This document shows, one piece after another, positions 1 to 14,924 of a DNA stretch of 14,924 bases. This stretch comes from Cudoniella acicularis (lineage: Eukaryota; Ascomycota; Leotiomycetes; Helotiales; Helotiaceae). The stretch spans positions 1 through 14,924 of the forward strand of contig JAAMPI010001401.1 of the NCBI GenBank assembly GCA_013054445.1, written 5' to 3'. The position numbers and the translations under genes were made by a program. The notes beneath the pieces are model-generated. The model did not search any database. It was given only the letters and a program-made list of their open reading frames with translations, and was not told the DNA's origin. Each line of letters opens with the position of its first letter. Within the stretch, counting starts at the first letter, position 1.

Positions 1-534
1 ACTATTCTATTTATATTGTCTATTTAAAAAGCTTAAAACATATATTTAATATCTTAATATAGTCAATACCTTAGCTACTTCTTTTACCCGCTTATTAAAA
101 TTTATAACTACTTTTTTAGGGACTTCTACTAAACCCTTAAGGTGATTCTTATTAGTAGCAAGCTTTCCTAATATTACTGATTAGATCTCTAATATATATT
201 CTTTAATATCTAGCTCCTCTAAAAGCTAAAGGTTCTCTCCCGATTGTTCTTCTACTTGCTGTCGTAGCTTAGCCCGCTTCTAGAGATATAATTCCTTCTT
301 TTCTTTAAACCTATCCTTAAGGCTATTAAACTTCTTTCGAGTATAGGGCTTTACTCTTAAAGCCGCCGTCGAACCCTTTAGCCCTCTACTCGTATTAACT
401 TTGATCTTTACCGATAGAAGAGGATTAGTACGCGAGTTATGGTTTTATGACTCTATAGATTCGGATATATAGTTTAGAGACAATTTAAGTTATAGTAGAC
501 CGTAAAATTTTCGTGGCCCCGTAACTTCCGACAT
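1..534 (-). pseudogene. RIP-inactivated gene of unknown function, possible coiled coil; 3' end beyond left edge
   Basis: One minus-strand frame can be followed from an ATG at 534-532 to the window edge, about 178 codons, with only seven stops. All seven are TAA or TAG, as expected from mutated Gln or Trp codons. The N-terminus reads MSEVTGPRKFYGLL. Around residues 60-105 (about 355-220) the protein is rich in Lys, Glu, Arg and Gln, with short pieces such as KKFNSLKDRFKEKKELYL and KRAKLRQQVEEQ, which suggests a charged helix or coiled coil. A more hydrophobic, lysine-containing segment with VPKKVVINFNKRVKEVAKVL follows. I do not recognise the family. A regulatory or structural protein would fit the composition, but that is a guess. 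The ATG is the only Met start visible in frame, and the upstream DNA (535-800) looks non-coding. Strand and frame are fairly well supported by the low stop density. Confidence 0.5.
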
Positions 535-1089
535 GATATTTAAAGACAATAGAGTTAAATAAGTATAGACAATATACGGCCTAAGGCTAAATTCTTAATA
601 TTACTAAGCGATTTGGGTAGTAGGATAGAGGCCTATACTAGAATCGCTTAGACATAGTCTAAGGTAAAAAAAGTTACGACGTAGTATAGTAATTGCCGAT
701 TCTAAGTTTAGGCTTCGGAGCTAGAACCGGCCTCTCTAAACCTGCGTAGTTAATCCCTAGTCAAGTAATATTTATAAGCGCTACTATAAGGTTTACGCCC
801 TATAATAGCTATTCTCTGTCTCTATACCCTGTTTCTATACCCTTGTCTTTATACCCTCTTAGGTGAGATTATATATATAGCTAATAAGGGGAGTTAGTAT
901 TATACTATCTCTAATAATTTTATATTATGATTTCCGGGACGACCCGTCTAGAATATCATATATAGAACTAATAGTACGGCTTCTAGTATAAGAGACTTAA
1001 ATGCTAAATAGAGTCTCTAGTTAATATACCTTACCCTTAGACTATAAAAACTTCTTAGAATCGTTATTATAGTACTAGCGAGAATCTAA
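535..1089. other. Intergenic, no gene seen
   Basis: This 5' flank of the minus-strand gene contains no frame with low stop density on either strand. It is AT-rich and TpA-rich like the rest of the window. The only distinct structure is the short minisatellite at 815-857. Any promoter for the gene starting at 534 would lie here, but no core element can be claimed because RIP creates TATA-like strings everywhere. Confidence 0.5.
815..857 (+). repeat. 13-bp minisatellite, about three units (left block)
   Basis: Three consecutive imperfect units of consensus ccctgtYtctata run through this stretch; the last carries an extra base (cccttgtctttata). The same unit occurs five times at 6063-6126 in the same orientation. 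Flanking sequence is not shared between the two blocks, so this looks like a dispersed short tandem repeat and not the ends of a mobile element. Confidence 0.8.
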
Positions 1090-1473
1090 ATACCCGAATA
1101 CGTATTCGGAATCACTCCCCCTAGATCTTATAGACAACGGTTTATAACAAAGATAAATAAGGAGAGAATCCGTCTAGAAAGGGAAGACTAAAAGGCAAAG
1201 CTTATAATTCGATTCCTTTAAAGAGAAAAAGCTAGGCCCTACTTTTATAAGGATATAGAAAAGGGCGAGGGTTTGGTCAGGTTAAGAGATTTTTTCTTAA
1301 AGGAGCTTACGGTATAAGAGAATATAGTATTTTCCGATAGGGTGAATAGTAACGACGAGAGGTGTAACTATAAGGGGATAAAAGTAAACCTCGAGAGGAA
1401 AAAGTATAAGACCGTTAAAGCTTTAAGAACGTTTATATAGGCGTTTATATCCTATAACAATAAGAAAAACTGT
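1090..1473 (+). pseudogene. Possible degraded reading frame, unknown
   Basis: The plus-strand frame beginning near 1090 reads about 128 codons with few TAA/TAG codons. It is lysine- and glutamate-rich, with segments such as KARPYFYKDIEKGEGLVRL and DRVNSNDERCNYKGIKVNL, and ends at TAG-TAA at 1474-1479. No start codon is evident. The opposite strand is also partly open over 1141-1440, so coding and strand are not secure. I recognise no family. It lies just upstream of the membrane-protein gene that starts near 1566, and could be a short separate gene or a chance open stretch in less mutated DNA. Confidence 0.25.
1094..1109. repeat. 16-bp perfect palindrome
   Basis: ccgaatacgtattcgg is its own reverse complement. 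It sits at the beginning of the doubtful remnant at 1090-1473. It may be a protein-binding site or chance; it contains no CpA or TpG, so RIP would leave it untouched. Confidence 0.6.
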
Positions 1474-1565
1474 TAGTAACTGACTCTCGATATCTCGCCG
1501 TTATTCTACTAATTAAAGGCGTGTGAGTTTCTTTTATATGAAAATAGATATATTAGCGCGCGAAT

Positions 1566-2468
1566 ATGATATTCTATACTTAAGAATTAGACTTATTCTC
1601 TGATTCGTATATAGGTAAACCACTAGGCACGGAAGCCACTTTCTAGCTTATAGAGCTCTACGAAACCAGCCGGCATTTATACGTAATAATATAGGGACCT
1701 AAACCGGCCCCTTCCTAAAATAGCGTTAGCTAGAGGTATTAAAAGGCGTGTTCGACACTTAATAGATCGCTAATAACTATAATAAGTGCCTTACCTAGCA
1801 CCACCTCCGTTGATCTAACAAGAACACTGCCTAGATCCTTTAAGCAGTTTAAGGAAGAAATAGAACATGATCTTTAGACAATATCTATAACGGAGACTCC
1901 CTATATAGCCAAGTCTACCTAGGCGAACCAAGCCCTAACCTAGGACAACATCCGTACCGTATTCTTCTTATAGCTCACACTAGCGGGGTATGTCGTATTT
2001 CTAGGGACTTTCACTTCTCTTAAAACTTCGTAGACTCTCGTAAGTAGTACTAGTAGAAGGGTTATTTAATATACGCTTAAGAAGGGGCTTTTAGGGATCG
2101 TAGGAGCCTACTGCCTTTTTAGAACAGTTAGGACAAGCTAGTTATAGTATAAATAGCGGAATAATACTATTTAGCTAGTTATAAACATATTTTTATAAGT
2201 TTCTTAAGATTATCTTAAAAGACAGAGCACTAACTAGATAATCTAAAGACCTAGGCTACTCTACTCACTTACCGGCCTTATTACTACCCTTATTAACATC
2301 TATACCGCTTAAGGTAGGCACTGGTCTATTACTACTAAGGTTACGATTATCGTGATTGGTTTATATACCGGAAATATAACTATACTATATTTGGTTTATA
2401 ACTACTAGATTTTAGAGAAGATAAAGACAACTCGTGATAGAGCGCTGGCTAAGCGGAATCGGACTTAG
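1566..2468 (+). pseudogene. RIP-inactivated multi-pass integral membrane protein (ascomycete hypothetical family)
   Basis: One frame can be followed from ATG 1566 to TAG 2466, about 300 codons, interrupted only by TAA/TAG. An N-terminal soluble part (about residues 1-130) contains TLPRSFKQFKEEIEHDL. It is followed by hydrophobic segments at about 1962-2025 (LTLAGYVVFLGTFTSL), 2079-2127 (KKGLLGIVGAYCLF), 2247-2310 (LLYSLTGLITTLINIYTA) and 2328-2405 (TKVTIIVIGLYTGNITILY). A basic tail with KTTRDRALAKRNRT follows. The order is like that of an uncharacterised ascomycete membrane-protein family whose members, as I remember them, carry an LAG-VVFPGTFTSL-type segment and an LLTTLINVYTA-type segment. 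Function is unknown. The start is chosen because the upstream frame (1501-1565) is dense in stops; the TAG at 2466 follows the basic tail and may be the true stop. No frameshift was noticed within the frame. Confidence 0.6.
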
Positions 2469-2582
2469 AAGTACTCTTAGGTAAAGACGGAGCTTTAGTA
2501 AGTGATTTAGGATATTATAAAAGGTGTCCTACTAGTTTAGATTAGATTATAGCTTAGTTTTTATTATAATTATATTAATAAA

Positions 2583-3830
2583 TTAAAGAAAGAGTAGTTA
2601 TCTACGTATAATATTAGGTGTTATATTTCGGCTCTATTTATTTCCGGTAAGTCTAGCTAACCTCTTATATACTCTAACTCGGTATAAGCCGTTTTTAGAT
2701 CTAGGGCTATTTTTAAAGAGGATTATTCTAGGATTCTCTATTTCTAAGGGATATCGTTCTAGCCCCCTTTATATATAGGTTTATAGCCTAAATTTATAAG
2801 CCTAACGCTACCTTTTAATCAGAATTTTTACTATATTTATAACACTAATTTGACTAAGGCAAATCATATAATAACATCCGTAATACCTTTAATATTACTA
2901 TTCCCTTCTTTTCCTTTACTGCCTATAGAAATACGTTTAAGGATCTAGGAGTACGTCTATTACCTATATCTACGTCAGGTCGCTATTAGGCATAACGGTT
3001 AAGACTTTTCCTTTAAAGCCGATTTATAACTTCTATCTAACTTTTTCGTTTATCGAGAATCTCGATTTAAAGTCCTAAGAACAGTCTAGCCACTCTTATA
3101 TAACGGACAAATCGTAGAATATTTTAACGCTACTTGTGACACGCTCGCTCCTAATACTAGGCCTAATCCTTCCCTATTTAAACTATTTAAGGCTACTATA
3201 CGAGTAGTAATAAAGTAGGAAGATAAGGAATAGATTGTTCGCCTTTTATACTAATTTCTAAAGCTAGAGAAACTCTTTTTAATAATACTAGCTTCCTTAA
3301 TAGAAAACTACTACTCGTTTATAACAAGATATATAACTAGAAATCCTAAATAGAGCGTATTAATATTAGCGCTAAGATACTAGCCACTATAGAGTAATCT
3401 GGTCTTAAACATTATTAATAAAAGAAGAATATAGGAACTTAAAGATATAAAAATACCGGAGTTTAGCCTACGGATTTATAAAGAGCGTACGCACTACCGT
3501 AAAAGTGGCCTATTACCTTTTAGCTATACCTTTACGTCTACTTTCTAATATTCGGTTTATTCGGCTAAAGGTTTCCTATTATGTTATTTAGGAATATAAA
3601 GGTATTATATCGTAATTTTTACCCCTATTAAGGAATTTAATTTTACTCTAATTAAAACAGCTCTTTCTAGCCTCGGCTGTTTATACTTAGCCTAATTAAA
3701 TAATATTAAGTAAACGAATATACGGCGAGTGATCTCGTTATAGATCTTATATTATGTTTCTAAACAACCTTTTTAAGATATGTTTACGGCTATTATTACT
3801 CTATTCCTTTTAAACAAAATCTAACTTTTC
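2583..3830 (+). pseudogene. Probable degraded coding region, unknown protein
   Basis: The same frame as the preceding gene continues to read with a stop density of about 6% (about 18 of 296 codons in 2943-3830), all TAA/TAG. The best stretch is about 3078-3210, 42 codons without a stop, with pieces like GQIVEYFNATCDTLAPN and SLFKLFKATIRVVIK. Another is near 3450-3530 (KIPEFSLRIYKERTHYRK). No start codon or conserved motif was recognised, and a minus-strand frame is also open over about 3065-3220, so strand is uncertain. It is probably separate from the 1566-2468 membrane protein, whose C-terminal tail ends naturally before it. It would be convergent with the MFS gene to its right, with about 50 bp between the ends. 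Confidence 0.35.
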
Positions 3831-3876
3831 TTTTATACTATCGTGCCCTATCTCTATTTCTATTATAGTCTTTCCT

Positions 3877-5663
3877 CTACTAAAGAGCTAACTTCTCCCG
3901 CTTTATAAGAGTACTACTAATAATACTAATAGCGCCTATAATAATAACTAGGATCTAAATCACGCCTATAGTATCTATAATAGCATCTATCGCCAACTTC
4001 TAGACATTTAGATCATTACTAGTAAGAATCGTAGACTTCGTACCCGTAAGAGCGCCTCTAAGCTCCTTAGTACTAAAACCTCGTCCTATAAGAGCATCCC
4101 CTAACTTAATAAACCCTACGTTCTAGAAAATGATATTCGCGAGAGAGAGTACGATAGTAGCGCTTCCGATTTATAAGACGTTTATAACGCCGGTAGCGCC
4201 GAAGATCTCTTCTAGCTTAACCTTTATAATAGCTACTAAGTAAGCAACTTGTAATAAAAGGCCAGCTCCGATCGCTACTAAGACTTCGTAGCTATAGACT
4301 ACGCCGGTATTAGTACTAGTATTAACGGTGTGTATAAGTACCCCTCTAATTGTTATAAAGACACCGGTAATAATATAGATAGGTATATATCGTCCGAGTA
4401 CTAGAAGTAGACTACCTACGAGTATAACGAAAAAGATCATAATATAGATAAATAGTAGAAGGCGGATTACTACTTTGATCGCTAAGTCACCTCTCGTGAA
4501 TTAGAAGAAGAGAGGGATATAATAGACAGAAACGAATATACCGGTAGTAGCTATAGTATAGGTAATATAAAAAAAGAACGATAGTTCTACTTTTTAGGAT
4601 CTAAACGGGGAATAGTCGTCTTTCGGCAGTCGTAAAGATATAGTAAACTTATTAAAAGATATAGGCGAAAAGAAAGACCCTAAAGACGGCCTAGAGAGAA
4701 ATTAGTCCGGCGGACTTCTATTTCTATATAGATCCCGAGAAGGTATATACGACCTAGAAGAAGGTCTAAGTGCTAGTATTAAAGAAGACTCTAACCTAAT
4801 CTATCTGCTTTAACTTTATAAAACTAGAGACGTCGGGCTTACTATTATATCTTAGAAAAAGGAAGATATATACTAGCGTAACTAAAGCGGCTAATAGAAG
4901 GTTGATATAAAAGGCCTATCTCTATATAGCTTTACTTTCTACGAAGCCTTCGCCGATAACGGGTCCGAGAATTACTCCTGTTCCCTAGTATAAACCGATT
5001 ACTATATTATAAATAGGCCGTTCTTTTATACTCGTAAAGACGGAGTTATATATCAAGGCACTAACGAAGGTTAGACACGCGTCGCGATAAACTAGGGAAA
5101 GAATATTATCTTACCCGAGATATATGCCTATACTACCTAAACTAGTAATAACTCTACCGATAATCATAGCATTTATAGTAGGCGCTATACTATAAACCGT
5201 ACTACTAATCTTAAAGAGGAGAACACTATCAATCATAAGGTATTTGATCTTAAAGAGAGTATAACACTATCCGATAAGTAGAATCGTAGCGATAGATCCT
5301 ATAAGAAATCTAATACCGACCTAAGCTAACTTCTCGATTTCTCTTAGGGATTCGAGAATAGGCCCTTATATATCGGTAGTAATTATAGTATCTAGCCCTA
5401 AAAGGTTATAATTAATTTAGGAAATATAGACCGCTTTAAAAGAACTTATTATAGAGAAGAGATCCTAGAAAGAGACTAATATAGACTAACGCCTATACCT
5501 AACTACTAATTAGTCTTTTAAATCGTATAGTTTTCTCTTTAGTAGTATTAAGATCAAGAAATAAGATTTTTTCGATATCGATAGATGACTAGTAAAGGGT
5601 TATATTTCCGGTAGTGTCTCCCGCGGTATTAGCTTACTCGACTTTTAGAGCTATCTTTTTTAT
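3877..5663 (-). pseudogene. RIP-inactivated 14-TM MFS drug/metabolite efflux transporter
   Basis: The ancestral product is a fungal major facilitator superfamily proton antiporter of the 14-TM efflux type, acting in the plasma membrane. Reading right to left: the N-terminal tail includes DIEKI (about 5595); TM1 has NYNLLGLDTIITTDI (about 5418-5374); then YTLFKIKYLMIDSVLLF (5263-5213), GRVITSLGSIGIYLG (about 5158-5114), ERPIYN, GVILGPVIGE (antiporter motif C, about 4975-4949), and a WRWAFYIN motif read as TAG-AGA-TAG-GCC at 4924-4913, where both Trp codons are stops. Next come FIKLKQID-V, YYIPLFF-FTRGD (about 4515-4480), and an intact 89-codon island at 4440-4171 holding YEVLVAIGAGLLLQ. The C-terminal part, about 4170-3883, includes NIIF-NVGF and ends in a KREKLAL tail. 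Besides many TAA/TAG codons there is a frameshift at the A7 run 4569-4575, and a second frame change between about 5555 and 5464 (intron or indel). The start is placed at ATA 5663-5661, a likely former ATG; ATA 5654 is an alternative. The stop is placed at TAG 3882-3877. Substrate cannot be told. Confidence 0.85.
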
Positions 5664-6062
5664 ATACGATAAACGATTTAATAAGAGACTAAAAACTTGT
5701 TAAAAGATTAAAGATAGTAATAAGTAAGTTAGGAGGCTAAAGTAAAGTAAACTATAAATTAAAAACAAATAGGGTTTATAGAGGTTAAAATAAGGAACAA
5801 GTATAAGGAGGCAGTAGTAAGAGCTAGGAGCTAATAATAGTAGCCGAATGCCTAAACGACTGTTCTCTCCGGACATAGAATAGTATAGAGCTTAGCGAGG
5901 GGTAGCGAGAGACACTAGAGGTCCGATACTCGGTACGCTAGTTCCGTATTTTTAAAGAGCCGACAGATAATGACCTTATCTTATACTTAAATTATAGCTA
6001 TATTATATAACTCTAAATTCTTCGGCTATAGTAACCTAGTAGGGCTTATTCCTACTATATAT
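5664..6062. other. Upstream flank of the MFS gene, no gene seen
   Basis: This A-rich stretch on the plus strand (T-rich on the sense strand of the MFS gene) has dense stops in the frames examined. It presumably held the MFS promoter and 5' leader. A purine-rich plus-strand run at about 5750-5850 corresponds to a pyrimidine-rich leader upstream of the MFS start. No specific binding site can be supported. Confidence 0.45.
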
Positions 6063-6132
6063 CCCTGTCTCTATACCCTGTCTCTATACCTGGTTTCTAT
6101 ACCTGGTTCTATACCCTGTTTCTATACCCTAG
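6063..6132 (+). repeat. 13-bp minisatellite, five units (right block)
   Basis: Units start at 6063, 6076, 6089, 6102 and 6114. They are two identical ccctgtctctata, then cctggtttctata, cctggttctata (12 bp) and ccctgtttctata, with a partial ccctag. The same unit forms the block at 815-857. The unit keeps TpG dinucleotides that are rare in the surroundings. Confidence 0.9.
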
Positions 6133-6362
6133 CTTTACTATATTTTCGCCTAGTTCTAGAAAGCGAGGATACCGCTATATAGGAGCCAACCAGGCCTCTA
6201 ACGCTAGGAGTGTTAGGATCACGTTTGGCTTCTACTAACTCTTGATTAGCTCTAGTAGATCTAGATATATAATTAAATACTATAAAGAACACTTCTTATC
6301 CTAGTTTCCTATATTTTTAAGAATTTAGATCGATAAATAATTTAGAGGCCAGACTTTTAATC

Positions 6363-6998
6363 TCTTACGAGTATTTATACACACGAACCAAAACACCCTC
6401 TCTATCGCCGTCGTAACTGCTTCCGACTATAGGGTTTCTAGAAATAGTAGAAAAAGAAATTTTAACTACTACCTATCCTCTTTCTTACGATTTGACGTAA
6501 CAAACCTACGAACAAGTAAAGTTCGACCTAACGATAATAGTAAAGACATACGAGAGCCTAAAAGTTTGGCCACCCTACCCCTCCTTACTATATCCGGAAA
6601 CTAAGGCGAAGTTTAAGGTCTCTTATATCAAGTACGATAGGATTAAAGACGGCGAGAGAGACTAGTAAGGGAGGGTTATAAGAAGAGGGCTTTACGGATC
6701 TCTTAGCGCTCTTCTTACTAGAGTCAAACACAAGTATAGGCTGTTTATAGACTACGGACTATTAATAAGGCTATTGACTCTTTATATCGAATACTATATA
6801 GAATTAGGGCTATATTATAAAGTTGATCAAATTGATCAAATATTTGGTTTTAGGGACAATAATAAGAGACCTAGAGGTATAGTCTTAAAGATTTTATATA
6901 AAGAGGTCGAGGAGATCGTCTCTAGTAAAATAATCGTAATAGAAGGCGTGCTCTTGAATACGGGCACTATTAAAACGGTCGGCGTAAATAGTAAATAG
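6363..6998 (+). pseudogene. Degraded gene of unknown function with a 74-codon surviving island
   Basis: One plus-strand frame reads from about 6363 to TAG 6996-6998 with only four clear stops in about 210 codons (one near 6408, one near 6496, and a TAG-TAA pair near 6663). Pieces include VEKEILTTTYPLSYDL, YESLKVWPPYPSLLYPETKA, VSYIKYDRIKDGERD and, near the end, RDNNKRPRGIVLKILYKEVEEI and VIEGVLLNTGTIKTVGVNSK. The last 74 codons (6774-6995) are completely open but begin at TTG, not ATG, so they are the 3' part of a longer gene. I do not recognise the family; it looks soluble, mixed alpha/beta and charged. CAA codons survive in the tandem 9-base repeat ttgatcaaa at 6823-6840, so mutation here is lighter. 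The start is not identified; the frame can be extended to about 6270 with more stops. Confidence is fair for coding, nil for function. Confidence 0.5.
6823..6840 (+). repeat. Tandem duplication of ttgatcaaa inside the 6363-6998 remnant
   Basis: Two copies of the 9-mer ttgatcaaa lie head to tail, each containing the palindrome ttgatcaa. Translated, they give VDQ-IDQ, so the frame is kept. Four CpA/TpG sites survive here. Confidence 0.8.
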
Positions 6999-7680
6999 AG
7001 AATATAATATCTATAGAACTAGGGAAGGTCAACCTTAGCAAATTGATAAGCAGAATAGATAAGGGCTTAGTTTTATACTTCTTATACTCTCTTTAGAATA
7101 CTTGAAAATTTCCTTTTATTACCTTATATATAGTAGTATCTTAGTACAATTATAGCGTAGAGAGCACGACATGCCGCTAATATAGTTTTCTTCTAATCAA
7201 AGTAAAACATATTCTAGGTCTTAATCTTATTCCCTATTCCGTCCTTTAACGGGGGACAATCTATGTTAGTAGGTGATCTTAGCTTATAAAGTGATATTAG
7301 ACCCGTAAGCCCCGTACGTAGCTCACGTGGCGATAGGGAGCTTAAATTGGCCCTAGCGCTTTATAGACGAGTGCCGTGATTACGGGACCTAAAATTGATT
7401 ATTAGTAGCCCTCGCCGCCTCCCGTATCTTTACTAATTTTAGATAGTAGCCTTAAAGAACATCTTAAATTAGCTACTATTTTTAGGCCGGGCGCTTCTAT
7501 AAAACTACTAACCTTCTTACTTGTCGAGGACTTATCTTATTTCTCTTCGATAGCTAGTTTCTATCTATAATTTTGCCTTTTCTCGTCTTTGATTTTAAGC
7601 CTTTATATTTCTATCGCCAACTTATCGTCGTCTTATAGTCCTGTCCTTCCTTCTATAGAATCTGTCTTCCCTATAGCGTA
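6999..7680. promoter_or_regulatory. Upstream region of the four-TM gene, no gene seen
   Basis: No convincing coding frame was found, although a short frame opening at ATG 7264 is partly open in a CpG-richer patch (7290-7420). A CACGTG E-box core occurs near 7324. The last about 130 bases before the ATG at 7681 are strongly pyrimidine-rich (repeated ctt, tct, ttct), as is common in leaders just upstream of fungal genes. That supports 7681 as the ancestral start. No TATA or transcription start can be fixed. Confidence 0.4.
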
Positions 7681-9227
7681 ATGTCTAGTAGGTCGTCCGG
7701 TATAAAATAAGAGTAAGCTAATAAGTAATATAATAAACAACGAAAAGAAACGCCTTACGCCTTAGAATAGAGAAAGAAAAGACTTGACCTCGTCCTTAGA
7801 AACTTCACTTAAAGTTCCCTATACTCTAAGGTTCGTAGAAGTAACCTCTATATGCTCTCCTAATAAGGCTAATAAGGACCACCGATCTCCTTTCGCGGAC
7901 CCTTCTTCTAAAAAGACATAACCCTATATAGCGCAAGCATAGCCGTCAGATATTAGCTTCGGCTATATCTCTTCTAACAACCCGGCGCGCTATTATATCG
8001 AGACCCTAATCCTACCCGCCTCTCTATTAAAGAGTATTATAAGAGCACTAGGTATACCCGAACGGAAAATAGACAACCTATTAAGCCCGATATTCCGGGA
8101 AGAATATCTATTAGAAAAGTATAAACAGGGGACTAAGAAGGAACAAGCTAAAGATTTGGCGAGTATAGACACTAGCTATACTTTATAAAAGTAGCTAATA
8201 ATATCATAGAAAATCAAAACTAGAGTCCGGGTAGCGAAGTTTGTTCTAAAAGGCGTAAATTTTAGCTATAGCCTTATCGTTCTTACTATACTTTTAATGA
8301 CCTTTACGATTTTTAACGTAACGAAACATTTAGCGCTACGAAATAACTTCCTATCTTAGGCTTAAGGGCAGAAGACATGGCTATAAATCACTGTCTTAGT
8401 AATTGCCTATATCTCGTTAGTATTTTGTTTGTTAATTTTCTAGAACTATTAGAGAAGGGGTTATAGGAAGGCAGAGAAGGTTACTATCTATTCTACGCTC
8501 TTCGCGGTAGGATTCTTTATCTTTAGTATCGTTATATAGGCTATTACGGCTACTATTCTTTAATAGTCTAAGAACTCTGGCTATAGAAAGGACATATAGG
8601 GCTAGTCATGCGTTGATAATGACAGAAGGGAGCTGTTCTAAGAAGAAGTAGATTATATACTAGTTTATAAAATATAGGTAAGCTATCCCTTAAAAACCCT
8701 CCGAACCTAACTAACAAACGTCATAGAATTAGTCCTTAGTTTACTACCTTATCGAAATTATCTTAGAATATATTACGGTTATCTTATACGATATAGTGTT
8801 CTATAGATACTATTCTAAGCAACGCCTACGCAAGTCTATAGATGTCCGAGACCGCGCCCGTTCTGACCTCTACCTCGCTTAACTCTACTCTTAATCCGTA
8901 CCGAACATACCCGGCTTTAATCTTATGTCTCTATCCTACTCTATACACGTCAAGTCTACCTATAATAACGGCCTAGACGCCGAAGAAAGATCCGCTAGCG
9001 CCTATTTCGTTAAAGCCAAGTCAAACTCGACTCTTAATACTAAGTCGTCTGCCCTCTAACCTCCTCCTATCAAGATCTAATCCGCTATACCTAAGGTTGC
9101 TTAAAACAGCTTCGAGAGAGTAGCTTCTTTACCTATCGAGAGAAGGATAGAGCACGTATCCGCCGTACCCGGCGAGCAGACCTACGATACCGTGCCTATT
9201 CTAGGCGCCTACGCTATACCGCTCTAA
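7681..9227 (+). pseudogene. RIP-inactivated four-TM integral membrane protein of an ascomycete family, unknown function
   Basis: The ancestral product is a membrane protein with an N-terminal cytosolic region, four membrane segments and a long, serine-rich C-terminal tail. The segments are at about 8264-8335 (YSLIVLTILLMTFTIF), 8378-8446 (ITVLVIAYISLVFCLLIF), 8480-8560 (VTIYSTLFAVGFFIFSIVI) and 8733-8811. A SCVDNDRRELF loop lies between TM3 and TM4. The tail motif RDRARSDLYLA-L-S-SVPN at 8847-8906, followed by IPGF (8907-8918), strongly resembles the ARSDLYLAQLRSQSAPNTPGF-type tail of uncharacterised ascomycete membrane proteins, as I recall them. The frame from 7862 to the end carries about 23 TAA/TAG codons and no TGA. 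The N-terminal frame from ATG 7681 (MSSRSSGIK) differs by one register from the main frame entered between about 7741 and 7862, so an indel or unrecognised intron lies there. A clear intron is at 8678-8726. The stop is placed at TAA 9225, though that too could be a former CAA. A MARVEL-type fold is possible but not shown. Confidence 0.75.
8678..8726 (+). other. Spliceosomal intron, 49 nt, sites intact
   Basis: Donor GTAAGC at 8678, branch-point-like CTAAC at 8707-8711 and again at 8711-8715, and acceptor CATAG ending at 8726. Removing it joins the frame before (VYKI-stop, ending 8677) to the frame after (N-stop-SLVYYLIEII, from 8727). The whole of TM4 and the C-terminal tail then read as one protein. 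Its short length is typical of filamentous ascomycetes. Confidence 0.85.
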
Positions 9228-9681
9228 AATTCCGGATTAGTATTCTTTTATTATGTCCGGATCTAGGTATTAGGGGTTATTATTTATAATAGATAAATAT
9301 AATATAAATGTCACTCGTAGGGTTAATAACAGAATAAGGAGCGGGTAAAGATAGAGGGAGTGAGTCTTATAGGAGGACAGGATTATATATTAGAAACTAG
9401 GAATTATGATTATATAAATAAAGTATATATTTACTCTTAAGAATCTATATTATCTAGGCGTTAGAAAAGTGAGTTATAGAATTTAAAATCTCTTATCCGA
9501 GTATTTTTAAAGTATATTTTTATCTAAATTTCCGGAGTCCCTAGGTATAGAACCTTCTACCTTAATCAGGCCTACTAATTTACGGTCACGAAGATAGATT
9601 TATAAATAGACCTAAATCCTTTAAGGTTTAGTGACTAACTTATAAAGTTAGTCTTAGATCGTAATTCGTAGCGTACGCCTT
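9228..9681. other. Intergenic between convergent genes, no gene seen
   Basis: This is the 3' flank of the four-TM gene on the left and of the minus-strand basic-protein gene on the right. It is TpA-rich with dense stops, and I found no repeat or terminator-like structure in it. The minus-strand frame of the next gene can be read a little way into it but with many stops. Confidence 0.45.
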
Positions 9682-10176
9682 TTATTCTGACTTTAAACCG
9701 AACAGTTGTTTCCCTTCTCCCCGACGAAAGTCCTTTAACTGTTTGACCGACCCTATCGGAGATAATCAACTTAATAAAATAACTAGATACTAAATAATAA
9801 GAAATATTACTTTAAATAATCTCTATAACGAATAATAGCTTTTACCCTAATCAGAAACTCTCGGACTAACCTACCTAACCTCCTTTATAGCCACCCCTAT
9901 ACCTACTACGAGAGTAGGCTAACTTTATTCTTTATTCGTAGTCCTACCTCTTTTATAATACTCTTCTTTTCTTATAGATTCCGGCGATAGAGTAGAGGAT
10001 CGTCTTTTACGGGATCTTCTTTCTTAGTATCGCTTTAGTAATTCACCCGGATATAATACGACAATCCCGGGTATATAATCTTTAAATTTACCCTCGCCTG
10101 ATATATAGCTTAGAGGAACCTCGTCGTAAGAATAGTGATCATCAGATACTACGTTTAATATCTTCCGACGAGACAT
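9682..10176 (-). pseudogene. RIP-inactivated gene for a basic protein of unknown function
   Basis: From ATG 10176-10174 the frame is fully open for 50 codons (MSRRKILNVVSDDHYSYDEV and onward, including FKDYIPGIVVLYPGELLKRY). After that it is broken by TAA at codon 51 and by a few more TAA/TAG (codons 84, 86, 102, 110, 118). Residues 52-82 are very basic and serine-rich (ERRSRKRRSSTLSPES), which suggests a nuclear or nucleic-acid-associated or phosphorylated region. A hydrophobic stretch near residues 120-135 (LFKVIFLII) might be a membrane segment. Beyond about codon 120 the reading is weaker, with one TGA, so the end at TAA 9684-9682 is tentative. I do not recognise the family. Two plus-strand frames are partly open opposite it, but neither has a start or such a long uninterrupted run from an ATG. 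It is divergent from the ferritin-like gene, 682 bp away. Confidence 0.55.
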
Positions 10177-10858
10177 CTATTTCGGCTTTTAAACCTTTAT
10201 ACCGACGCTATAAAACCCTTTCGCCCTCGGCCTACTATCGGATCTCCTAGGCCCTACTACTATTATTCTATATCCTAAAAACATATTACTTATAATAGAG
10301 TAGAAGGTAGCTACTTAGTAGTGTGTATTTTAGAGCGGAGTAGTAGAGCGTTTAAGTAATAGTTTTTATAACTTTTTACGAGCTAATATATTTTATATAT
10401 TAGATAAGTCTTATGCTTATAGGGCGCCTCTTTAGGTCTAGCTATATAAGACAGGGGCTATATTATAGGATAGAGAGGACAATTAGGGCCAGAATTAGAT
10501 ATCGTAGCCTTAAGGTGTCCGTAGTAGACCCTCTTATTATATTGCTTATAAAAGGGCTATACCTCGTAGAAATCACTTTATAGTATATCTAGTTATACTC
10601 TTAAATTAGATTTATTCGGATCCGAAACCGGCACCGCTTCTATTATTAGTAGCTATTAAGAATGATTTATATAAAGGGTCAGAAACGAGATCCTAGTAAT
10701 ATACTATCTTACGAGTATTAAATCAGCTTAAAGGAAGCTATTAATAAACTTTTATTATTACTAACTCCTTCTATTCTAGTTTATTCTTATCTCTTCCGAA
10801 CATAGATATATACTCTCCCGTTACTATAGGCGGTCTTCTTTACGTATCTGCTATTCTT
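10177..10858. promoter_or_regulatory. Shared upstream region of two divergent gene remnants
   Basis: The interval between the minus-strand start at 10176 and the plus-strand start at 10859 contains no convincing reading frame. It presumably held both promoters. The sequence is heavily TpA-enriched, so individual elements cannot be distinguished from mutation products. Confidence 0.4.
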
Positions 10859-11842
10859 ATAAGGAGCTTTGTCGCCGTAGTATCGCTTTATAATAATATT
10901 ATAGCTATAACAGGAGGTAGCTTGCCTGATATTAGCAAACTATTATCGATTTTAATAAGTATAGTTAAGGGTTTCTAACTAGCCCTATTTCTTAAAAACT
11001 TAAAAATATTATTCTTCTAGACTAGTATAACTAATATTATAGAGTAGAGTATAAATAGATACCCGAACGATACTATTAAAGTTGTTACTAGTATTACTAT
11101 TATAAGTTACTTTACTCCTAAACTTATAAATACTAACCCGCCCTTATAGTAAGAAGAGGTTTACGTTACTACTATTATTGATCTACTTAAAACCTATAGC
11201 GTAGCTCCTATTCCCCCTTATAACTACTCTTTCCTAGTTAACTCTACTAAGGAATTTTTCGAGATTACTAATATAATTACCTTCGTTAGTATCGGCGTAA
11301 TTATCGGTCTTTCCTAAGGTCTCGCGGTCACGGATCTACTGCTTATATAATCGGTATTATCGATACTTACTATTAAGGCCCGTCAAGATGCTTTCTTCCG
11401 GTATCTCGAAGGGAAAGCACTTAATCCGGCACCTTTTAATACCGGTATTAGTAAAATTTAGGCATATAACCTCGCCCTCTTATTTATCGTCCCTAGATCT
11501 TGCTATATTAAGATTCTATTGCTTATACTGCCTGCCCTAAATGTTTTAGACCTAATTATAACTAACTCTACTAAGTTATCCCTTCGAGAGTTTAAGTAAG
11601 ATCCGACGTAAATACTATTCGTTATAGAAGCTAGTAAGTAATTACTAGTTAGCTAGGTTAACTAGCTTAATATACCGGTATATATACCGTTGAATATTAC
11701 GATAAAGGGGAAAGGGACAGTAGCTATACTACTAGGGATAAACAGGGCGGTATTTATAGTAGTGACGACGTAATAACCGGATAATACCGACGACCTTACT
11801 CTTACGATACTAGCGGGACTAGTAATTTTAATATTGTCTTAA
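10859..11842 (+). pseudogene. RIP-inactivated secreted ferritin-like (Rds1-like) protein
   Basis: The ancestral product is a fungal protein with a ferritin-like helical-bundle domain (the Ferritin_2/Rds1-type group), about 310 residues, probably secreted. The start is ATA 10859, a likely former ATG, followed by a signal-peptide-like RSFVAVVSLYNNIIA. The domain begins with a helix containing FQLALFLKNLKILFF (read with one stop), then RYPNDTIKVV. After the intron come EEVYVTTIIDLLKTY and FEITNIITFVSIGVIIGLS, then SILTIKARQDAFFRYLEGK, where the Glu-Ala-Arg of the family reads Lys-Ala-Arg by a G-to-A change. Next are APFNTGISKI-AYNLALLF, PRSC and LPALNV. The C-terminal part has PVYIPLNITIKGKGTVAI and ends LVILILS-TAA at 11840. 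About fourteen TAA/TAG codons break the frame and none is TGA. Metal-ligand Glu/His residues cannot be assessed after mutation. Such proteins are linked to stress response and sexual development in fungi; the biochemical role is unsettled. I am confident in the family, less in the exact start. Confidence 0.75.
11102..11149 (+). other. Intron remnant, 48 nt, donor mutated GT to AT
   Basis: The segment starts ATAAGT where GTAAGT is expected. The base before it is T, so a TpG-to-TpA change explains it. It holds a CTAAC branch-like site at 11133-11137 (in TACTAAC) and ends TTATAG at 11149. Removing it joins VVTSITI to Q/stop-EEVYVTTI, restoring the continuous helix expected in the family. Its length is divisible by three and the phase is zero. 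Confidence 0.7.
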
Positions 11843-12121
11843 GAAGATATTTAGAGAATTTTAAATTTTAATAGCTTATTTCGAGGATAATAGATTTATT
11901 TAAGGGATTCTAATAGTTTTTAATTTTATTAAAAGAACTTGTTTTAGATATCGGTAGTTTAGTACTCTAAATCGTTTAAACTCTATAATATAAGAGAAAA
12001 TAGAGCCCCTAGATTTAAATATCACGTGATCTAAACTTCGGCACTAAAAAAAGGTCTTCGTTATTATATAGCTAGGCAATTTAACACCGCTATAGCGATA
12101 AATTTCTCCTATCACCTTTAT
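11843..12121. other. Intergenic, with a 10-bp palindrome containing an E-box
   Basis: No reading frame stands out. ATCACGTGAT at 12021-12030 is a perfect palindrome with a CACGTG core, the target of basic helix-loop-helix factors in fungi. It retains one CpA and one TpG in a region where these are scarce. It lies about 100 bp upstream of the next remnant, so it could have been a promoter element; this is inference from one motif. Confidence 0.35.
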
Positions 12122-12835
12122 TCCTCGCACGCTTTATCGTGTCGTTCTTATGACTATAACTCTACTAACTCGACGCTTAGAGTAGCCGTTTAATAGATTT
12201 TCTTCGTAACCTTTTCCTATTATCTATAGAAAGCTATCACGCTTGTTCTTTAGATTGCCTACGAAGGCTCCGCGTAGTAGAAGGTCTATTTGACCCTCGA
12301 AACGCTAGTCTTATATAGGCTATAAAGCTAGGTTTAGGCGCTACCCTATTCTTATAAACAAGACTATAGTGATTGCTAATTAAAACTTAATATAGTAGCT
12401 AAGATCGAGTTACGAAACCCTTACGATACCTCTTTAACGATAGATCTAGACCCTCCTATACGATTTCTTTTCCGGACTCGCCTAGATCAACTTGAGATAA
12501 TCTATCCTAGCCTTGACCACGCTAATATAATATTGATCGAAAGACTCTACTTAATATATAATATCGATATATCGAGAATATAACGTCTAATTACTAAGGT
12601 CTAGATCGAGAAGAAGACGGAGCGAGTAGATATTATTTGTGATTATAATGTCTCTACGAATACTAAACTAAAGGTTATAGTATATAATATTATAATTAAG
12701 GACTCGGATTTAATAATCGACCTACTTGTCTATTCGGAAATAAGATTAAGGGTAAACAAGGAAGTAAAGGCGTAGAAGAAATTAAATATTAAATATAAGA
12801 TAGATTTTCTAGGTCGAATAGACGTTCGAATTTAA
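12122..12835 (+). pseudogene. Degraded gene of unknown function, lightly mutated 3' half
   Basis: The frame from 12380 to the double stop TAA-TAA at 12833-12838 has only three internal stops (TAA 12581, TAG 12602, TAG 12773) in about 151 codons. That is far fewer than neighbouring frames and a good sign of real coding origin. Pieces are AKIELRNPYDTSLTIDLDPP, FLFRTRLDQLEIIYPSL, EKKTERVDIICDYNVSTNTK and VYNIIIKDSDLIIDLLVYSE. The frame may begin further left: 12122-12379 has about eleven TAA/TAG codons, and restored Trp or Gln there would give a hydrophobic segment around IFFVTFSYYL. No start codon was found. The C-terminal half looks like a soluble, charged, beta-rich domain. I do not recognise the family and infer no function. 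Confidence 0.5.
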
Positions 12836-13231
12836 TAACGTCGTTAAAGACAACTTCGCCGAAGAAATACTCTAATAAGTATACTCGGGTCTAATAAAAT
12901 ATAAGACTAATATATCTTCTAATAGCTATAAGTTAAGGTATCTTGCGAATTAGTATACGTTATAAGACTATATAAACTACGCTTGCTATAGGTCCTTCGT
13001 AGGAAAGGGGCTATGACCTATTACTAGGCGGGGAAAAGCTAAAGGCCCGACGGGGTACTAGCGACATTAGGAGGCAAGGTAACGGGATTAGGTCACGGGC
13101 TCGGACTATCAGATATAATCGCGGGATTGATAACGGGGATTGATCGTAGGTTCGGATTATAGGAGGGCTTTTTATATAATAAGGAACTTTAGCTTTTTAG
13201 CCTTTAAATCAAATTATACTCCTAGCTATCC
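12836..13231. other. Non-coding or unrecognised; G-rich repeat-bearing patch
   Basis: Frames on both strands carry dense stops. The patch 12990-13160 is unusually G-rich on the plus strand for this window, and holds an imperfect direct repeat (13080-13156). No gene is supported. Confidence 0.4.
13080..13156 (+). repeat. Imperfect direct repeat, about 26 bp, period 51
   Basis: The copy at 13080-13105 (taacgggattaggtcacggg then ctcgga) and the copy at 13131-13156 (taacggggattgatcgtagg then ttcgga) align with about 20 matches of 26 and small gaps. A shorter cgggattgat echo lies between and overlaps the second. This may be a decayed tandem repeat. Confidence 0.6.
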
Positions 13232-14034
13232 GCCTTCTAGCTAGCGTAATTAACCCTAGTAATCATTCGACCTCGTACTAAAATACACTTTACTACTTAA
13301 GAGAAGTGGCTCTTATACCTATCTACCTAAACCCTTAACTATCGCTTACTAACGAGCTGTCTAGTGTCTAAGCCTTATAACCGTAATGACTAGTCTCCTT
13401 TTTAGGTTTATCAACCTAGTTGACATTTAGGCAAGTATATAGATCAGGAGGATCTAGAGGACACTTTTAAGCTTCCTAACGTATTACGCAACTATACTTA
13501 GACTATTAAACAACTATAATATTATATATACTTCTCGAACGTTTAGTCTCTAGCTAATTCTTAGTTTTCGAATGTCCTTAATATATTAAACTTATAGGTA
13601 TATAGAATTATAATATCCTTTAAAATAGCCTTATAGATTAAATACTCCTCTAATCGTAATAAAATAGTCAATATTTTTATTCTTATAGATATTTATAATA
13701 AAAGTTACTTTTAGTAAAACCTAGGTTTTAAGGCCCGTTCTAGGTATTTAAGTGACTAGCTTAAAAGCTATTCGGATAAGGCCTCTTATTTAAGTAAAGG
13801 ACGACGTTAACTACTAACTCTACTTTCGTATTAACGCCTGCTTTAAGAGGGCGAGAATGTTACTATAAGGCTATCAGCCACTCGCCTAAGTTGTTAGATA
13901 TTATGCCCTTACGCCCTTAATTATCCCTAAAAGTAGGGATTTAATAACGTATTAGTATATAGTCGCTTACGGGGTAGTCACGGCCCGAGCCTTACTATTA
14001 CGAACCCGATCCTATTAGAGGAGTAGAGTAAGGG
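13232..14034. other. Possible remnant, strand and frame undecided
   Basis: A plus-strand frame starting near 13270 reads with about 7% TAA/TAG and contains protein-like pieces such as LGKYIDQEDLEDTFKLPNVL (13402-13461) and FKARSRYLSD (near 13730). That stop density is close to what mutated non-coding DNA gives, and other frames are partly open. I see no start, no family motif and no intron that would decide it. It may be a heavily mutated gene or plain intergenic DNA. Confidence 0.25.
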
Positions 14035-14924
14035 TTATAAGGCGCCGAGGGCCTCTTACTTGTCCTTATCCTGATAGCTAGGAGAGATACGCCTCTATGA
14101 TACGGCGGCCGTTGTTTCGCTATAAGTGGCTAAAATAGCTAAGATTATACGGCTTAAAATATAGGGTGAAATAAGGCTAACAACACCGACTATAACGCCG
14201 AACATCGATTTCTCGGAGAGTTCGATAGAAGCCTATAGTTATCTATTAAAGGGAATACGTATTATAACTAGTCTATAGTTATCCTCTATATTCCCTAAGA
14301 ACTAAAACGAAGTACGACGAGCCTATTTTATATTATTTTATTAATTTAATTTAAAGTAATCGTAGATAGTAAAATATAGTTTATATACTCTCTATCGCTG
14401 TTCTCCTATTATCGCGCTTTACTCTCCTAACGCCTCGTTAGTAGACGTCCTAAATCTCTCTGCCCTCCCTATTTCCGTTTATTATCTAAGCTAAGTATAA
14501 CGAGGGCTAGTACTTCTATTTAGGCGTTTAGCCCTTTTAATATCAAGAACATCTCCGTCGGGGCTATGTCTAAAATAAACATTAGTACTATAATACCTAG
14601 TTAATTAACCCGGAATCTCGTAAGATTCCGTAAGATATACTAAGTTAAAAATGCCTAAGAACTTCTTATAAAAATTATAGACTATTTCAAATAGAATATC
14701 AAATTCTATATAATTTAAATAATAAGGTACTTTAATGTCTTTTAGTATAATACTACTACTTTTAGACTAGGGTTAAACGACGTAGTCCCGAGGACGTAGA
14801 ATAACAAATACTAGGTCCTAGAGGCTATAGAAATCCTCTAAGTCGATAAGAGCCTTACCTACGCTATCTGCTAGGTAAAATATATCTATAGCTAAAGATC
14901 GAACTTTCCGGCGATAGTAGTAGA
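14035..14924 (-). pseudogene. Degraded gene of unknown function; 5' end beyond right edge
   Basis: One minus-strand frame runs from the right edge to TAA 14037-14035, about 296 codons with about 17 TAA/TAG and no TGA. The best part is 14924-14608: the first 105 codons have three stops, with pieces RSLAIDIFYLADSVGKALID, LVFVILRPRDYVV, LKDIKVPYYLNYIEFDIL and IVYNFYKKFLGIFNLVYL. It continues with NVYFRHSPDGDVLDIKRAKR (about 14587-14528) and a basic, Gln-rich stretch, then a hydrophobic FGVIVGVVSLISPYIL (about 14205-14158) that may be a membrane helix. Downstream of about 14330 a plus-strand frame is equally open, so the 3' half is less certain. The family is not recognised. Confidence 0.45.
14611..14630. 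repeat. 8-bp inverted repeat with 4-nt loop
   Basis: cggaatct, cgta, agattccg form a perfect short hairpin. It lies inside the minus-strand remnant, where it encodes part of LTESYEIPG, so it is probably a chance feature of coding sequence and not a terminator. Confidence 0.6.

What the first reader, a model, noticed from the sequence alone, without database searches (positions are those of the whole stretch)
1566..11842. RIP has destroyed a block of host-type genes, not transposons
At least four recognisable or probable genes (two membrane proteins, an MFS transporter, a ferritin-like protein), on both strands and with introns, are all RIP-mutated. No transposase, integrase or reverse transcriptase motif was noticed. 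RIP needs duplication, so this may be the inactivated copy of a multi-gene segmental duplication.
Basis: inference. Interest (0 to 1): 0.75.

Follow-up and report, generated by a model that had tools for sequence, protein, structure and literature searches.

The report
RIP-wrecked copies of a gene block
This contig is one of several copies of a large fungal gene block that the fungus's anti-repeat mutation system (RIP) has riddled with mutations, so ordinary genes and not only parasitic DNA were destroyed; the process is known, but the number of copies and the shuffled gene order are noteworthy.

Summary
Observation confirmed and widened: all 14,924 bases are RIP-mutated. Against a lightly mutated copy in the same genome (C821:47397-53976), C>T/G>A outnumber the reverse 643 to 55, and 487/697 CpA sites are mutated versus 6-8% of other C (Fisher p ~2e-238). 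Genes: membrane-type protein with retained intron, MFS, an unknown gene, a second membrane-type gene, ferritin-like.

Duplication is shown: at least seven copies, mostly RIPed, of a block of about 30 kb or more, partly inverted tail-to-tail. Divergent paralogues are partly collinear (C639), partly scattered (C347, C990, C1549). So 'inactivated copy of a multi-gene duplication' holds, but as one of many; no complete unmutated block was found.

'Not transposons' is unproven. The wider block carries DUF3723, a Starship-associated gene, but none of 26 DUF3435 captain matches lies on the ten main block contigs. A Fot1/pogo-type element sits inside one copy and did not carry the block.

Best reading: RIP-inactivated copies of a recurrently duplicated, cargo-like gene block. 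Rival: derelict Starship cargo. Precedent: X3X3R8 in Stagonospora nodorum. Genome probably Cudoniella acicularis (inference).

The parts
1..14924 (.). RIP-mutated copy of part of a larger multi-gene block; the contig ends inside the block on both sides
   Evidence: CRI 1.12-1.62 throughout; collinear with C821:9570-30351 at 94-96% and, inverted, with C821:56337-41644 at 85-90%
41..383 (-). remnant of a small basic-protein gene
   Evidence: DNA match to C639:672-1014 (76%), where a 159-aa frame is open, and to unRIPed C1359:26023-27051 (85%), with a 182-aa open frame
817..857 (.). 13-bp minisatellite (TATACCCTGTCTC type), also dispersed elsewhere in the genome
   Evidence: related places
1018..1019 (.). 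TA at which block DNA of C1359 and of C1253 ends in Fot1/pogo-type terminal repeats (not interrupted in this copy)
1694..2443 (+). membrane-type gene with retained intron; splice donor RIP-mutated (GTAAGT in C639, ATAAGT here)
   Evidence: match to C639:1298-2089; alignment showing the intron; homologues in other fungi
3795..5778 (-). MFS transporter segment; protein matches 3883-4608 and 4547-4687
   Evidence: 71% over 3883-4608 with 3 TAG and 3 TAA; the open 270-aa frame of the C821 arm 2 copy scores MFS_1 1.3e-7, 31.3 bits, just under the curated cut-off 33.4
6058..6130 (.). second 13-bp minisatellite array
6354..7043 (+). gene of unknown function; 4 TAG, 4 TAA in frame
   Evidence: 51% to the open C347 paralogue; named homologues in Cadophora, Tricladium, Halenospora
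7712..8942 (+). second membrane-type gene, frame broken by stops
   Evidence: 73-84% to the 139-aa open frame of C821:48470-48886, open paralogue on C990; DNA paralogues C1067, C1269, C1270, C1050
9824..9825 (.). TA at which C821 arm 1 carries a 6,021-bp element with matching terminal inverted repeats (uninterrupted here)
10871..11836 (+). ferritin-like gene; protein matches at 10871-11101, 11150-11500, 11597-11836 with stops; the gap 11102-11149 corresponds to an intron
   Evidence: Ferritin_2 E 0.0021 (18.6 bits, below cut-off 24.7) in the window itself, 1.4e-13 in paralogue C1549; gap read against C1549
12380..14924 (.). further RIPed block DNA of unknown coding content, shared with both arms of C821 and, in part, C1102 and C5

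Best explanation
The window is one copy of a multi-gene block present at least seven times in a filamentous ascomycete genome, probably Cudoniella acicularis. The block spans about 30 kb on contig C976 (part of that placed only by matches, not read) and goes on for at least 4 kb in C810 and C1609. Shown: most copies are collinear where read (C5 is rearranged, C810 has a deletion); most were hit by CpA-directed C-to-T mutation; stop codons and a lost splice donor broke ordinary intron-bearing genes. Shown: the closest pair (this contig and C821 arm 1) differ almost only by transitions; inferred: RIP acted on both after they separated. Inferred: repeated large-scale duplication, in part as inverted copies, put extra copies into the genome and pre-meiotic RIP recognised and mutated each. 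The duplication mechanism is not shown; ectopic recombination or break repair in a repeat-rich region is my first choice, with former Starship cargo a serious alternative.
For: RIP spectrum and context. Copies: a 1-kb query gives 6 places including the window; the MFS protein query gives 6 block places (C821 twice, C976, C5, C1253, C448); C810 is a seventh that lacks window 3579-6514. Collinearity over 11-15 kb in C821 (both arms) and C1253, and in C976 where read. Tail-to-tail inverted copies in C821 (25290-35786 versus 46698-36206, 93%) and head-to-head copies in C1389. Window versus C821 arm 1: 2/3516, 2/6180 and 11/5061 transversions against 139, 233 and 233 transitions; of the changes towards T or A in the window 191 of 336 are at CpA; directions are even in the first two stretches (65/74, 122/111), not in the third (149/84). 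Intron retained, so the copies are not retroposed. In other fungi 5 of 31 hits of the first membrane-type gene and 2 of 29 hits of the unknown gene share a longest-contig length with one of the 120 listed (of 316) ferritin-like hits, so part of the linkage probably predates these duplications.
Against: No outer end of the block was reached, so 'segmental' versus 'element' is open. DUF3723 and a pool of genes re-used in differently ordered blocks (C1067/C1269/C812/C1050) suit a cargo element as well. Mutated CpA sites coincide between copies more than independence predicts (phi 0.18-0.57): either a RIPed ancestor was copied or RIP prefers certain sites; I cannot separate these. The assembly (1,836 contigs) may contain misjoins, for example at C821:47.2 kb where four N lie at the border between heavily and lightly RIPed DNA. 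Some pieces on different contigs may belong to one copy.
Confidence: 0.8

Rival explanations
1. Derelict Starship cargo: the block is (part of) a giant transposon that multiplied by transposition, carrying DUF3723, MFS, FSH1-type hydrolase and ferritin-like genes, and was then silenced by RIP, the captain gene being lost or on another contig. (Not exclusive of the best explanation, which leaves the mode of duplication open.)
For: DUF3723 in block copies on C821, C976, C810, C1389 (two), C1609 and, at another position, C5. DUF3723 is called a characteristic feature of Starships and RIP-affected 'derelict' Starships are described (PMC11623301 passages). The genome has 26 DUF3435 matches; C1462 has DUF3435 at 1454-2757 and DUF3723 at 12142-13759; C1075 has DUF3435 at 22525-23109 and DNA of the block's far end at 41292-43707.
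Against: None of the 26 DUF3435 matches lies on C448, C821, C976, C810, C1253, C5, C1102, C1389, C1609 or C1359, although the search finds copies with up to 16 stops. The edge at C821:5812 is private to C821: five other copies run on past it. DUF3723 is not universal: it was absent from Gaeumannomyces Starship cargo (PMC12134995 passage), and in Verticillium most TEs in Starship regions lacked a RIP signature (PMC12289983 passage). Palindromic joins are not a Starship trait known to me (recalled).
Confidence: 0.32
2. Each gene was duplicated separately (own transposon or single-gene duplication) and RIPed separately, and the clustering is chance.
For: The ferritin-like and unknown gene families also occur outside the block, many with stops; order is shuffled in C5.
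Against: DNA including intergenic stretches is collinear at 85-96% over 11-15 kb between the window, both arms of C821 and C1253.
Confidence: 0.03
3. AT-rich, CpA-poor composition from ordinary mutation bias or relaxed selection, not RIP.
For: None specific; AT bias exists in many fungal intergenic regions (recalled).
Against: CpA hit at 70% versus 6-8% for other C contexts and a 12-fold direction bias against a homologous copy in the same genome; four control stretches outside the block have normal CpA.
Confidence: 0.01
4. Subtelomeric block: copies spread by exchange between chromosome ends.
For: Multi-copy, rearranged and inverted copies, minisatellites and a private 15-bp-period satellite inside the block.
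Against: In the stretches fetched by then, only one TTAGGG doublet and no longer array, at C810:9938; not all contig ends were read. C1389 and C1359 pieces adjoin genes with MGM1-stalk and Adaptin_N domains, housekeeping types.
Confidence: 0.2

Closest known systems
X3X3R8 repeat of Stagonospora (Parastagonospora) nodorum (Hane and Oliver 2010, PMC3017866; passages seen)
   Same: RIP-degraded repeat family that turned out to be a cluster of endogenous genes with nine copies
   Different: Different genes (Rad5/Rad6-like); there a tandem X3-X3-R8 layout, here a larger block with DUF3723, inverted joins and, in one copy, a nested Fot1/pogo-type element
[quoted passage not shown] 1997; seen only as a reference-list entry; paper not held)
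   Same: RIP acts on long duplicated chromosome segments (title)
   Different: Recalled as duplications from laboratory translocation crosses; here natural multi-copy blocks
Derelict, RIP-affected Starships (PMC11623301; passages seen)
   Same: Large cargo-like gene set, DUF3723, RIP, gene content re-used in different combinations
   Different: No DUF3435 captain on the ten main block contigs and no element ends found
X26 subtelomeric RecQ-helicase repeat of S. nodorum (PMC3017866 passages)
   Same: Multi-copy gene-bearing RIPed repeat
   Different: No helicase and no telomere repeat array seen in the stretches read here; no helicase family search was made

Membership tests
RIP-mutated repeat | directional C:G to T:A transitions | tested here: met
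   643 versus 55 reverse and 68 transversions
RIP-mutated repeat | CpA context preference | tested here: met
   487/697 CpA versus 156/2204 other C
RIP-mutated repeat | sequence is (or was) duplicated | tested here: met
   at least seven copies
RIP-mutated repeat | RID-type methyltransferase in the genome | not tested
   no search made
RIPed segmental duplication of host genes (X3X3R8-like) | multi-gene collinear copies including intergenic DNA | tested here: met
RIPed segmental duplication of host genes (X3X3R8-like) | ordinary intron-bearing genes | tested here: met
   intron in the first membrane-type gene; homologues in other fungi
RIPed segmental duplication of host genes (X3X3R8-like) | an unmutated progenitor copy present | tested here: inconclusive
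   C821:47.4-56.3 kb only lightly mutated but with stops; unRIPed pieces on C1359 and C1389; C639 core collinear but divergent and only partly read
Starship | DUF3435 tyrosine recombinase captain as first gene | tested here: not met
   0 of 26 DUF3435 matches on the ten main block contigs; one lies on C1075, about 18 kb from DNA of the block's far end; a captain on an unjoined contig is not excluded
Starship | accessory DUF3723 (not itself diagnostic) | tested here: met
Starship | defined ends with target-site duplication or terminal repeats | tested here: inconclusive
   no outer end reached; the sharp left edge at C821:5812 is private to one copy
Starship | empty site in another strain | not testable with these tools
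   no second strain held

The most novel reading that the evidence does not exclude
The genome keeps a shared pool of accessory genes (MFS, DUF3723, ferritin-like, FSH1-type hydrolase, small membrane-type proteins) that was assembled into at least two families of large multi-gene blocks with different gene orders (this one, and C1067/C1269/C812/C1050), and each family was amplified and then destroyed by RIP: a natural record of repeated cargo-block assembly, amplification and RIP, perhaps by captain-less Starship relatives.
Probability: 0.3. Interest if true: 0.65.

Novelty: new member of a known kind. Interest (0 to 1): 0.45.

Why it matters
RIP is usually discussed as a defence against transposons. 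Here it has destroyed blocks of ordinary genes repeatedly in one genome, with heavily and lightly mutated copies side by side. Such a set allows one to ask how RIP limits gain of new genes by duplication, how a copy escapes, and whether gene blocks with DUF3723 were once cargo of giant transposons.

Tried and rejected
Six-frame Pfam scans of the whole window with X at each stop returned nothing, not even the MFS and ferritin genes known to be there, so they have no negative value; short stretches read the same way gave Ferritin_2 at 0.0021 and, in C821 and C5, DUF3723, but still nothing for the window's MFS stretch. The sharp left edge at C821:5812 looked at first like an element end; five other copies run past it, so rejected. 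The 15-bp-period satellite (palindromic GTTGTGCAAC units) looked like a block end; C810, C1609 and C167 carry related block DNA on its far side, so it is internal. The gaps in the ferritin match were first read as two introns; P0001 shows the second stretch as coding, and only the first gap fits an intron. I first took the C1549 and C639 ferritin copies as intact; C1549 has an in-frame TAG and C639 rows show a TAG, so they are at best near-intact. Shared RIP sites cannot date RIP relative to duplication. Whether the MFS, unknown and second membrane-type genes lie in the unread part of C639 was asked only through protein searches: none of the three matched C639.

Full report
What the window is. 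It is the whole of contig C448 of a 53.2-Mb, 1,836-contig genome. A ferritin-like protein listed as Cudoniella acicularis G7Y89_g13460 on a 12,825-bp contig (P0020) maps to own contig C639, which is 12,825 bp long, at 94-96% in three pieces. I infer that the genome is Cudoniella acicularis (Helotiales); this rests on a contig length and one protein.

RIP. The whole window, not only 1566-11842, carries the signature: CpA and TpG o/e 0.26, TpA 1.50, composite RIP index 1.12-1.62 in 29 of 29 overlapping windows; CA+TG 445 against 1693 +/- 30 in 200 shuffles. The decisive test is alignment with a lightly mutated collinear copy on contig C821. Over window 2669-9240 there are 643 C>T/G>A changes towards the window, 55 the other way and 68 transversions; CpA is changed at 487 of 697 sites and CpC, CpG, CpT at 38/657, 37/569, 81/978. 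Over window 667-2665: 205, 32 and 25; CpA 152/224. Fisher p values 1.9e-238 and 3.6e-68. An unRIPed piece on C1359 gives the same result (90/126 CpA). Four control stretches outside the block, one inside the inserted element of C821, have CpA o/e 0.94-1.24.

Genes. Protein and DNA matches place, from left to right: a small basic-protein gene (41-383, -), a membrane-type gene (1694-2443, +), an MFS gene (3795-5778, -), a gene of unknown function (6354-7043, +), a second membrane-type gene (7712-8942, +) and a ferritin-like gene (10871-11836, +). MFS_1 and Ferritin_2 were identified in less damaged relatives: the C821 MFS frame scores 31.3 bits, slightly below the curated 33.4, and the C1549 ferritin frame 51.6 bits. 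The open frames tested for the other four have no Pfam match over a cut-off. The unknown gene has 29 database hits, the named ones in Cadophora, Tricladium and Halenospora; the first membrane-type gene has 31, the named ones in Acephala, Xylogone, Tricladium, Glutinoglossum, Lipomyces and Hyaloscypha. In-frame stops in the window's matched stretches are TAG and TAA only. The first membrane-type gene keeps an intron with donor GTAAGT and a TACTGAC motif in C639; in the window the donor reads ATAAGT. The genes are therefore ordinary genes copied as DNA.

Copies. Query window 4000-5000 matches six places including itself. Joined with the other searches, the block is found as: C821 arm 1 (9570-30351, 94-96%), C821 arm 2 (inverted; 56337-41644 within the window's range, 85-90%, running on to 36206), C1253 (1-11280), C976 (about 20.5-50.3 kb; 24.4-38.0 kb not read, but ferritin-like, second membrane-type, unknown-gene and far-end matches lie there), C810 (lacking window 3579-6514), C5 (75-89%, rearranged) and the window: at least seven copies. 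Pieces on C1102, C1609, C1389 (two), C1359, C167 and C1588 may belong to these or further copies; for instance C1609 may be the left continuation of the window's own copy. Beyond the window the block carries, to the left, DUF3723, a satellite and then another MFS-type gene, and to the right, in C976 and C1102, an FSH1-type serine hydrolase. In C821 two copies stand tail to tail (25290-35786 against 46698-36206, 93%) and in C1389 two left ends stand head to head around the satellite. C821 arm 2 changes from heavily to lightly RIPed near 47.3 kb; four N stand at 47201-47245, so a misjoin is possible there. The lightly mutated part is not intact: the unknown gene has 3 TAG and 1 TAA and the second membrane-type gene shows stops.

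Order of events. The window and C821 arm 1 differ by 2/3516, 2/6180 and 11/5061 transversions but by 139, 233 and 233 transitions; of the changes towards T or A in the window, 191 of 336 are at CpA. I infer that both were RIPed after they separated. The directions are even in the first two stretches (65/74, 122/111) and uneven in the third (149/84). Among copies, mutated CpA sites coincide more than independence predicts (phi 0.18-0.57 over the three segments examined), which may be common ancestry or site preference.

Collinear paralogue: C639 holds the basic gene (-), the first membrane-type gene (+) and a ferritin-like gene (+, 8463-9495) in window order and orientation; the gene-bearing part that was read is not RIPed, though its first 500 bases have an index of 1.03. 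The MFS, unknown and second membrane-type genes do not match C639. Scattered paralogues: the unknown gene is fully open on C347 alone among the longer matches (two short partial matches also lack stops or nearly so), the second membrane-type gene is open on C990, and the ferritin-like gene of C1549 has one in-frame TAG. The MFS gene's best relatives outside the block are 39-41% identical. So part of the set has an older collinear relative, the rest is scattered. In other fungi, five of 31 hits of the first membrane-type gene share a longest-contig length with one of the 120 listed (of 316) ferritin-like hits (4735, 15131, 18970, 755020, 796255), and two of 29 unknown-gene hits do (521878, 755020); equal length suggests the same contig but was not otherwise checked.

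Transposon question. C821:19269-25289 is 6,021 bp, flanked by TA, with matching terminal inverted repeats (beginning ACGTCT) and DDE_1 frames, largely unRIPed inside RIPed DNA, hence probably later than the RIP around it. C1253:11281 and C1359:27052 begin with the same type of repeat at the same TA (window 1018-1019). These are passengers; they do not explain the spread of the block. The block's DUF3723 (C1389 frame 1.8e-10; C821 5.7e-34 and C5 5.4e-37 with X at stops; 53 genome matches in all) points to Starships, of which it is called a characteristic feature (PMC11623301, passage), though it was absent from Gaeumannomyces Starship cargo (PMC12134995, passage). None of 26 DUF3435 captain matches is on the ten main block contigs; one is on C1075, about 18 kb from DNA of the block's far end. 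Membership in Starships is thus not met on the defining feature; 'works like cargo of one' remains possible.

Second block family. C1067 and C1269 share five stretches related to this block (MFS-type, second membrane-type gene and others) at a nearly constant offset of 19.85-19.90 kb, and C812 and C1050 have some of them too; the stretches read around the second membrane-type gene on C1067 and C1269 (L026, L027) are RIPed. This looks like another RIPed multi-gene block with a different order; I did not align it.

Literature. RIPed repeats made of endogenous gene clusters are known: X3X3R8 in S. nodorum, nine copies (PMC3017866, passages). RIP of long segmental duplications in Neurospora is cited (Perkins 1997, reference-list entries only). 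RIP-affected Starships are described (passages). In Phialocephala subalpina, another Leotiomycete with a RIP signature, no large segmental duplications were observed (PMC5148876, passage). The one search that named the species returned one paper, whose passages naming it concern mating genes; the other searches were seen as listings, apart from the papers cited here.

Verdict. Real, well supported as RIP of a multi-copy multi-gene block; of a known kind; mechanism of amplification open between segmental duplication (preferred) and former giant-transposon cargo.

Noticed in passing
C821:19269-25289 (L038, L007): 6,021-bp insert, largely unRIPed, with TA target duplication, terminal inverted repeats, DDE_1 frames, a cysteine-rich frame and a further long frame, sitting inside RIPed block DNA.
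   Followed up: partly
C1253:11281 (L049) and C1359:27052 (L015): Both start with the same Fot1/pogo-type terminal repeat at the same TA (window 1018-1019), one flanked by RIPed right-hand block DNA and one by unRIPed left-hand block DNA, as if one insertion was later split or recombined.
   Followed up: partly
C1389:22615-22776 (L054) and C1359:24202-24362 (L056): 162 bp of block DNA at 99.4% identity, next to an MGM1-domain gene on one contig and an Adaptin_N gene on the other: looks like a recent rearrangement breakpoint with a short duplication.
   Followed up: partly
C1389:26705-27044, C810:25862-26051, C1609:4825-5074, C167:3-132: 15-bp-period satellite of palindromic decamers (GTTGTGCAAC, RIPed form GTTATATAAC); the exact pattern occurs on these four contigs only, 0 in the reversed control; C976 ends in a more diverged stretch of it. 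It lies inside the block.
   Followed up: yes
C821:47.2-47.4 kb (L041): Abrupt change from heavily to lightly RIPed DNA within one block copy, with four N at 47201-47245: a misjoin, gene conversion or real RIP border.
   Followed up: partly
C1067, C1269, C812, C1050: Second family of apparently RIPed multi-gene blocks built from related genes in another order, C1067 and C1269 matching at a near-constant offset of 19.85-19.90 kb.
   Followed up: no
window:817-857 and 6058-6130; several other contigs: 13-bp minisatellite (TATACCCTGTCTC type) dispersed between genes of the block and elsewhere in the genome.
   Followed up: no
C1075:22525-43707: A DUF3435 match (22.5 kb), an unknown-gene paralogue (27.6 kb) and DNA of the block's far end (41.3-43.7 kb) on one contig: a candidate captain-bearing relative.
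   Followed up: no
C639:8463-9495: The protein P0020 lacks a stretch that homologues code for, as if the gene model skips a stop as an intron; possibly a lightly RIPed gene.
   Followed up: partly
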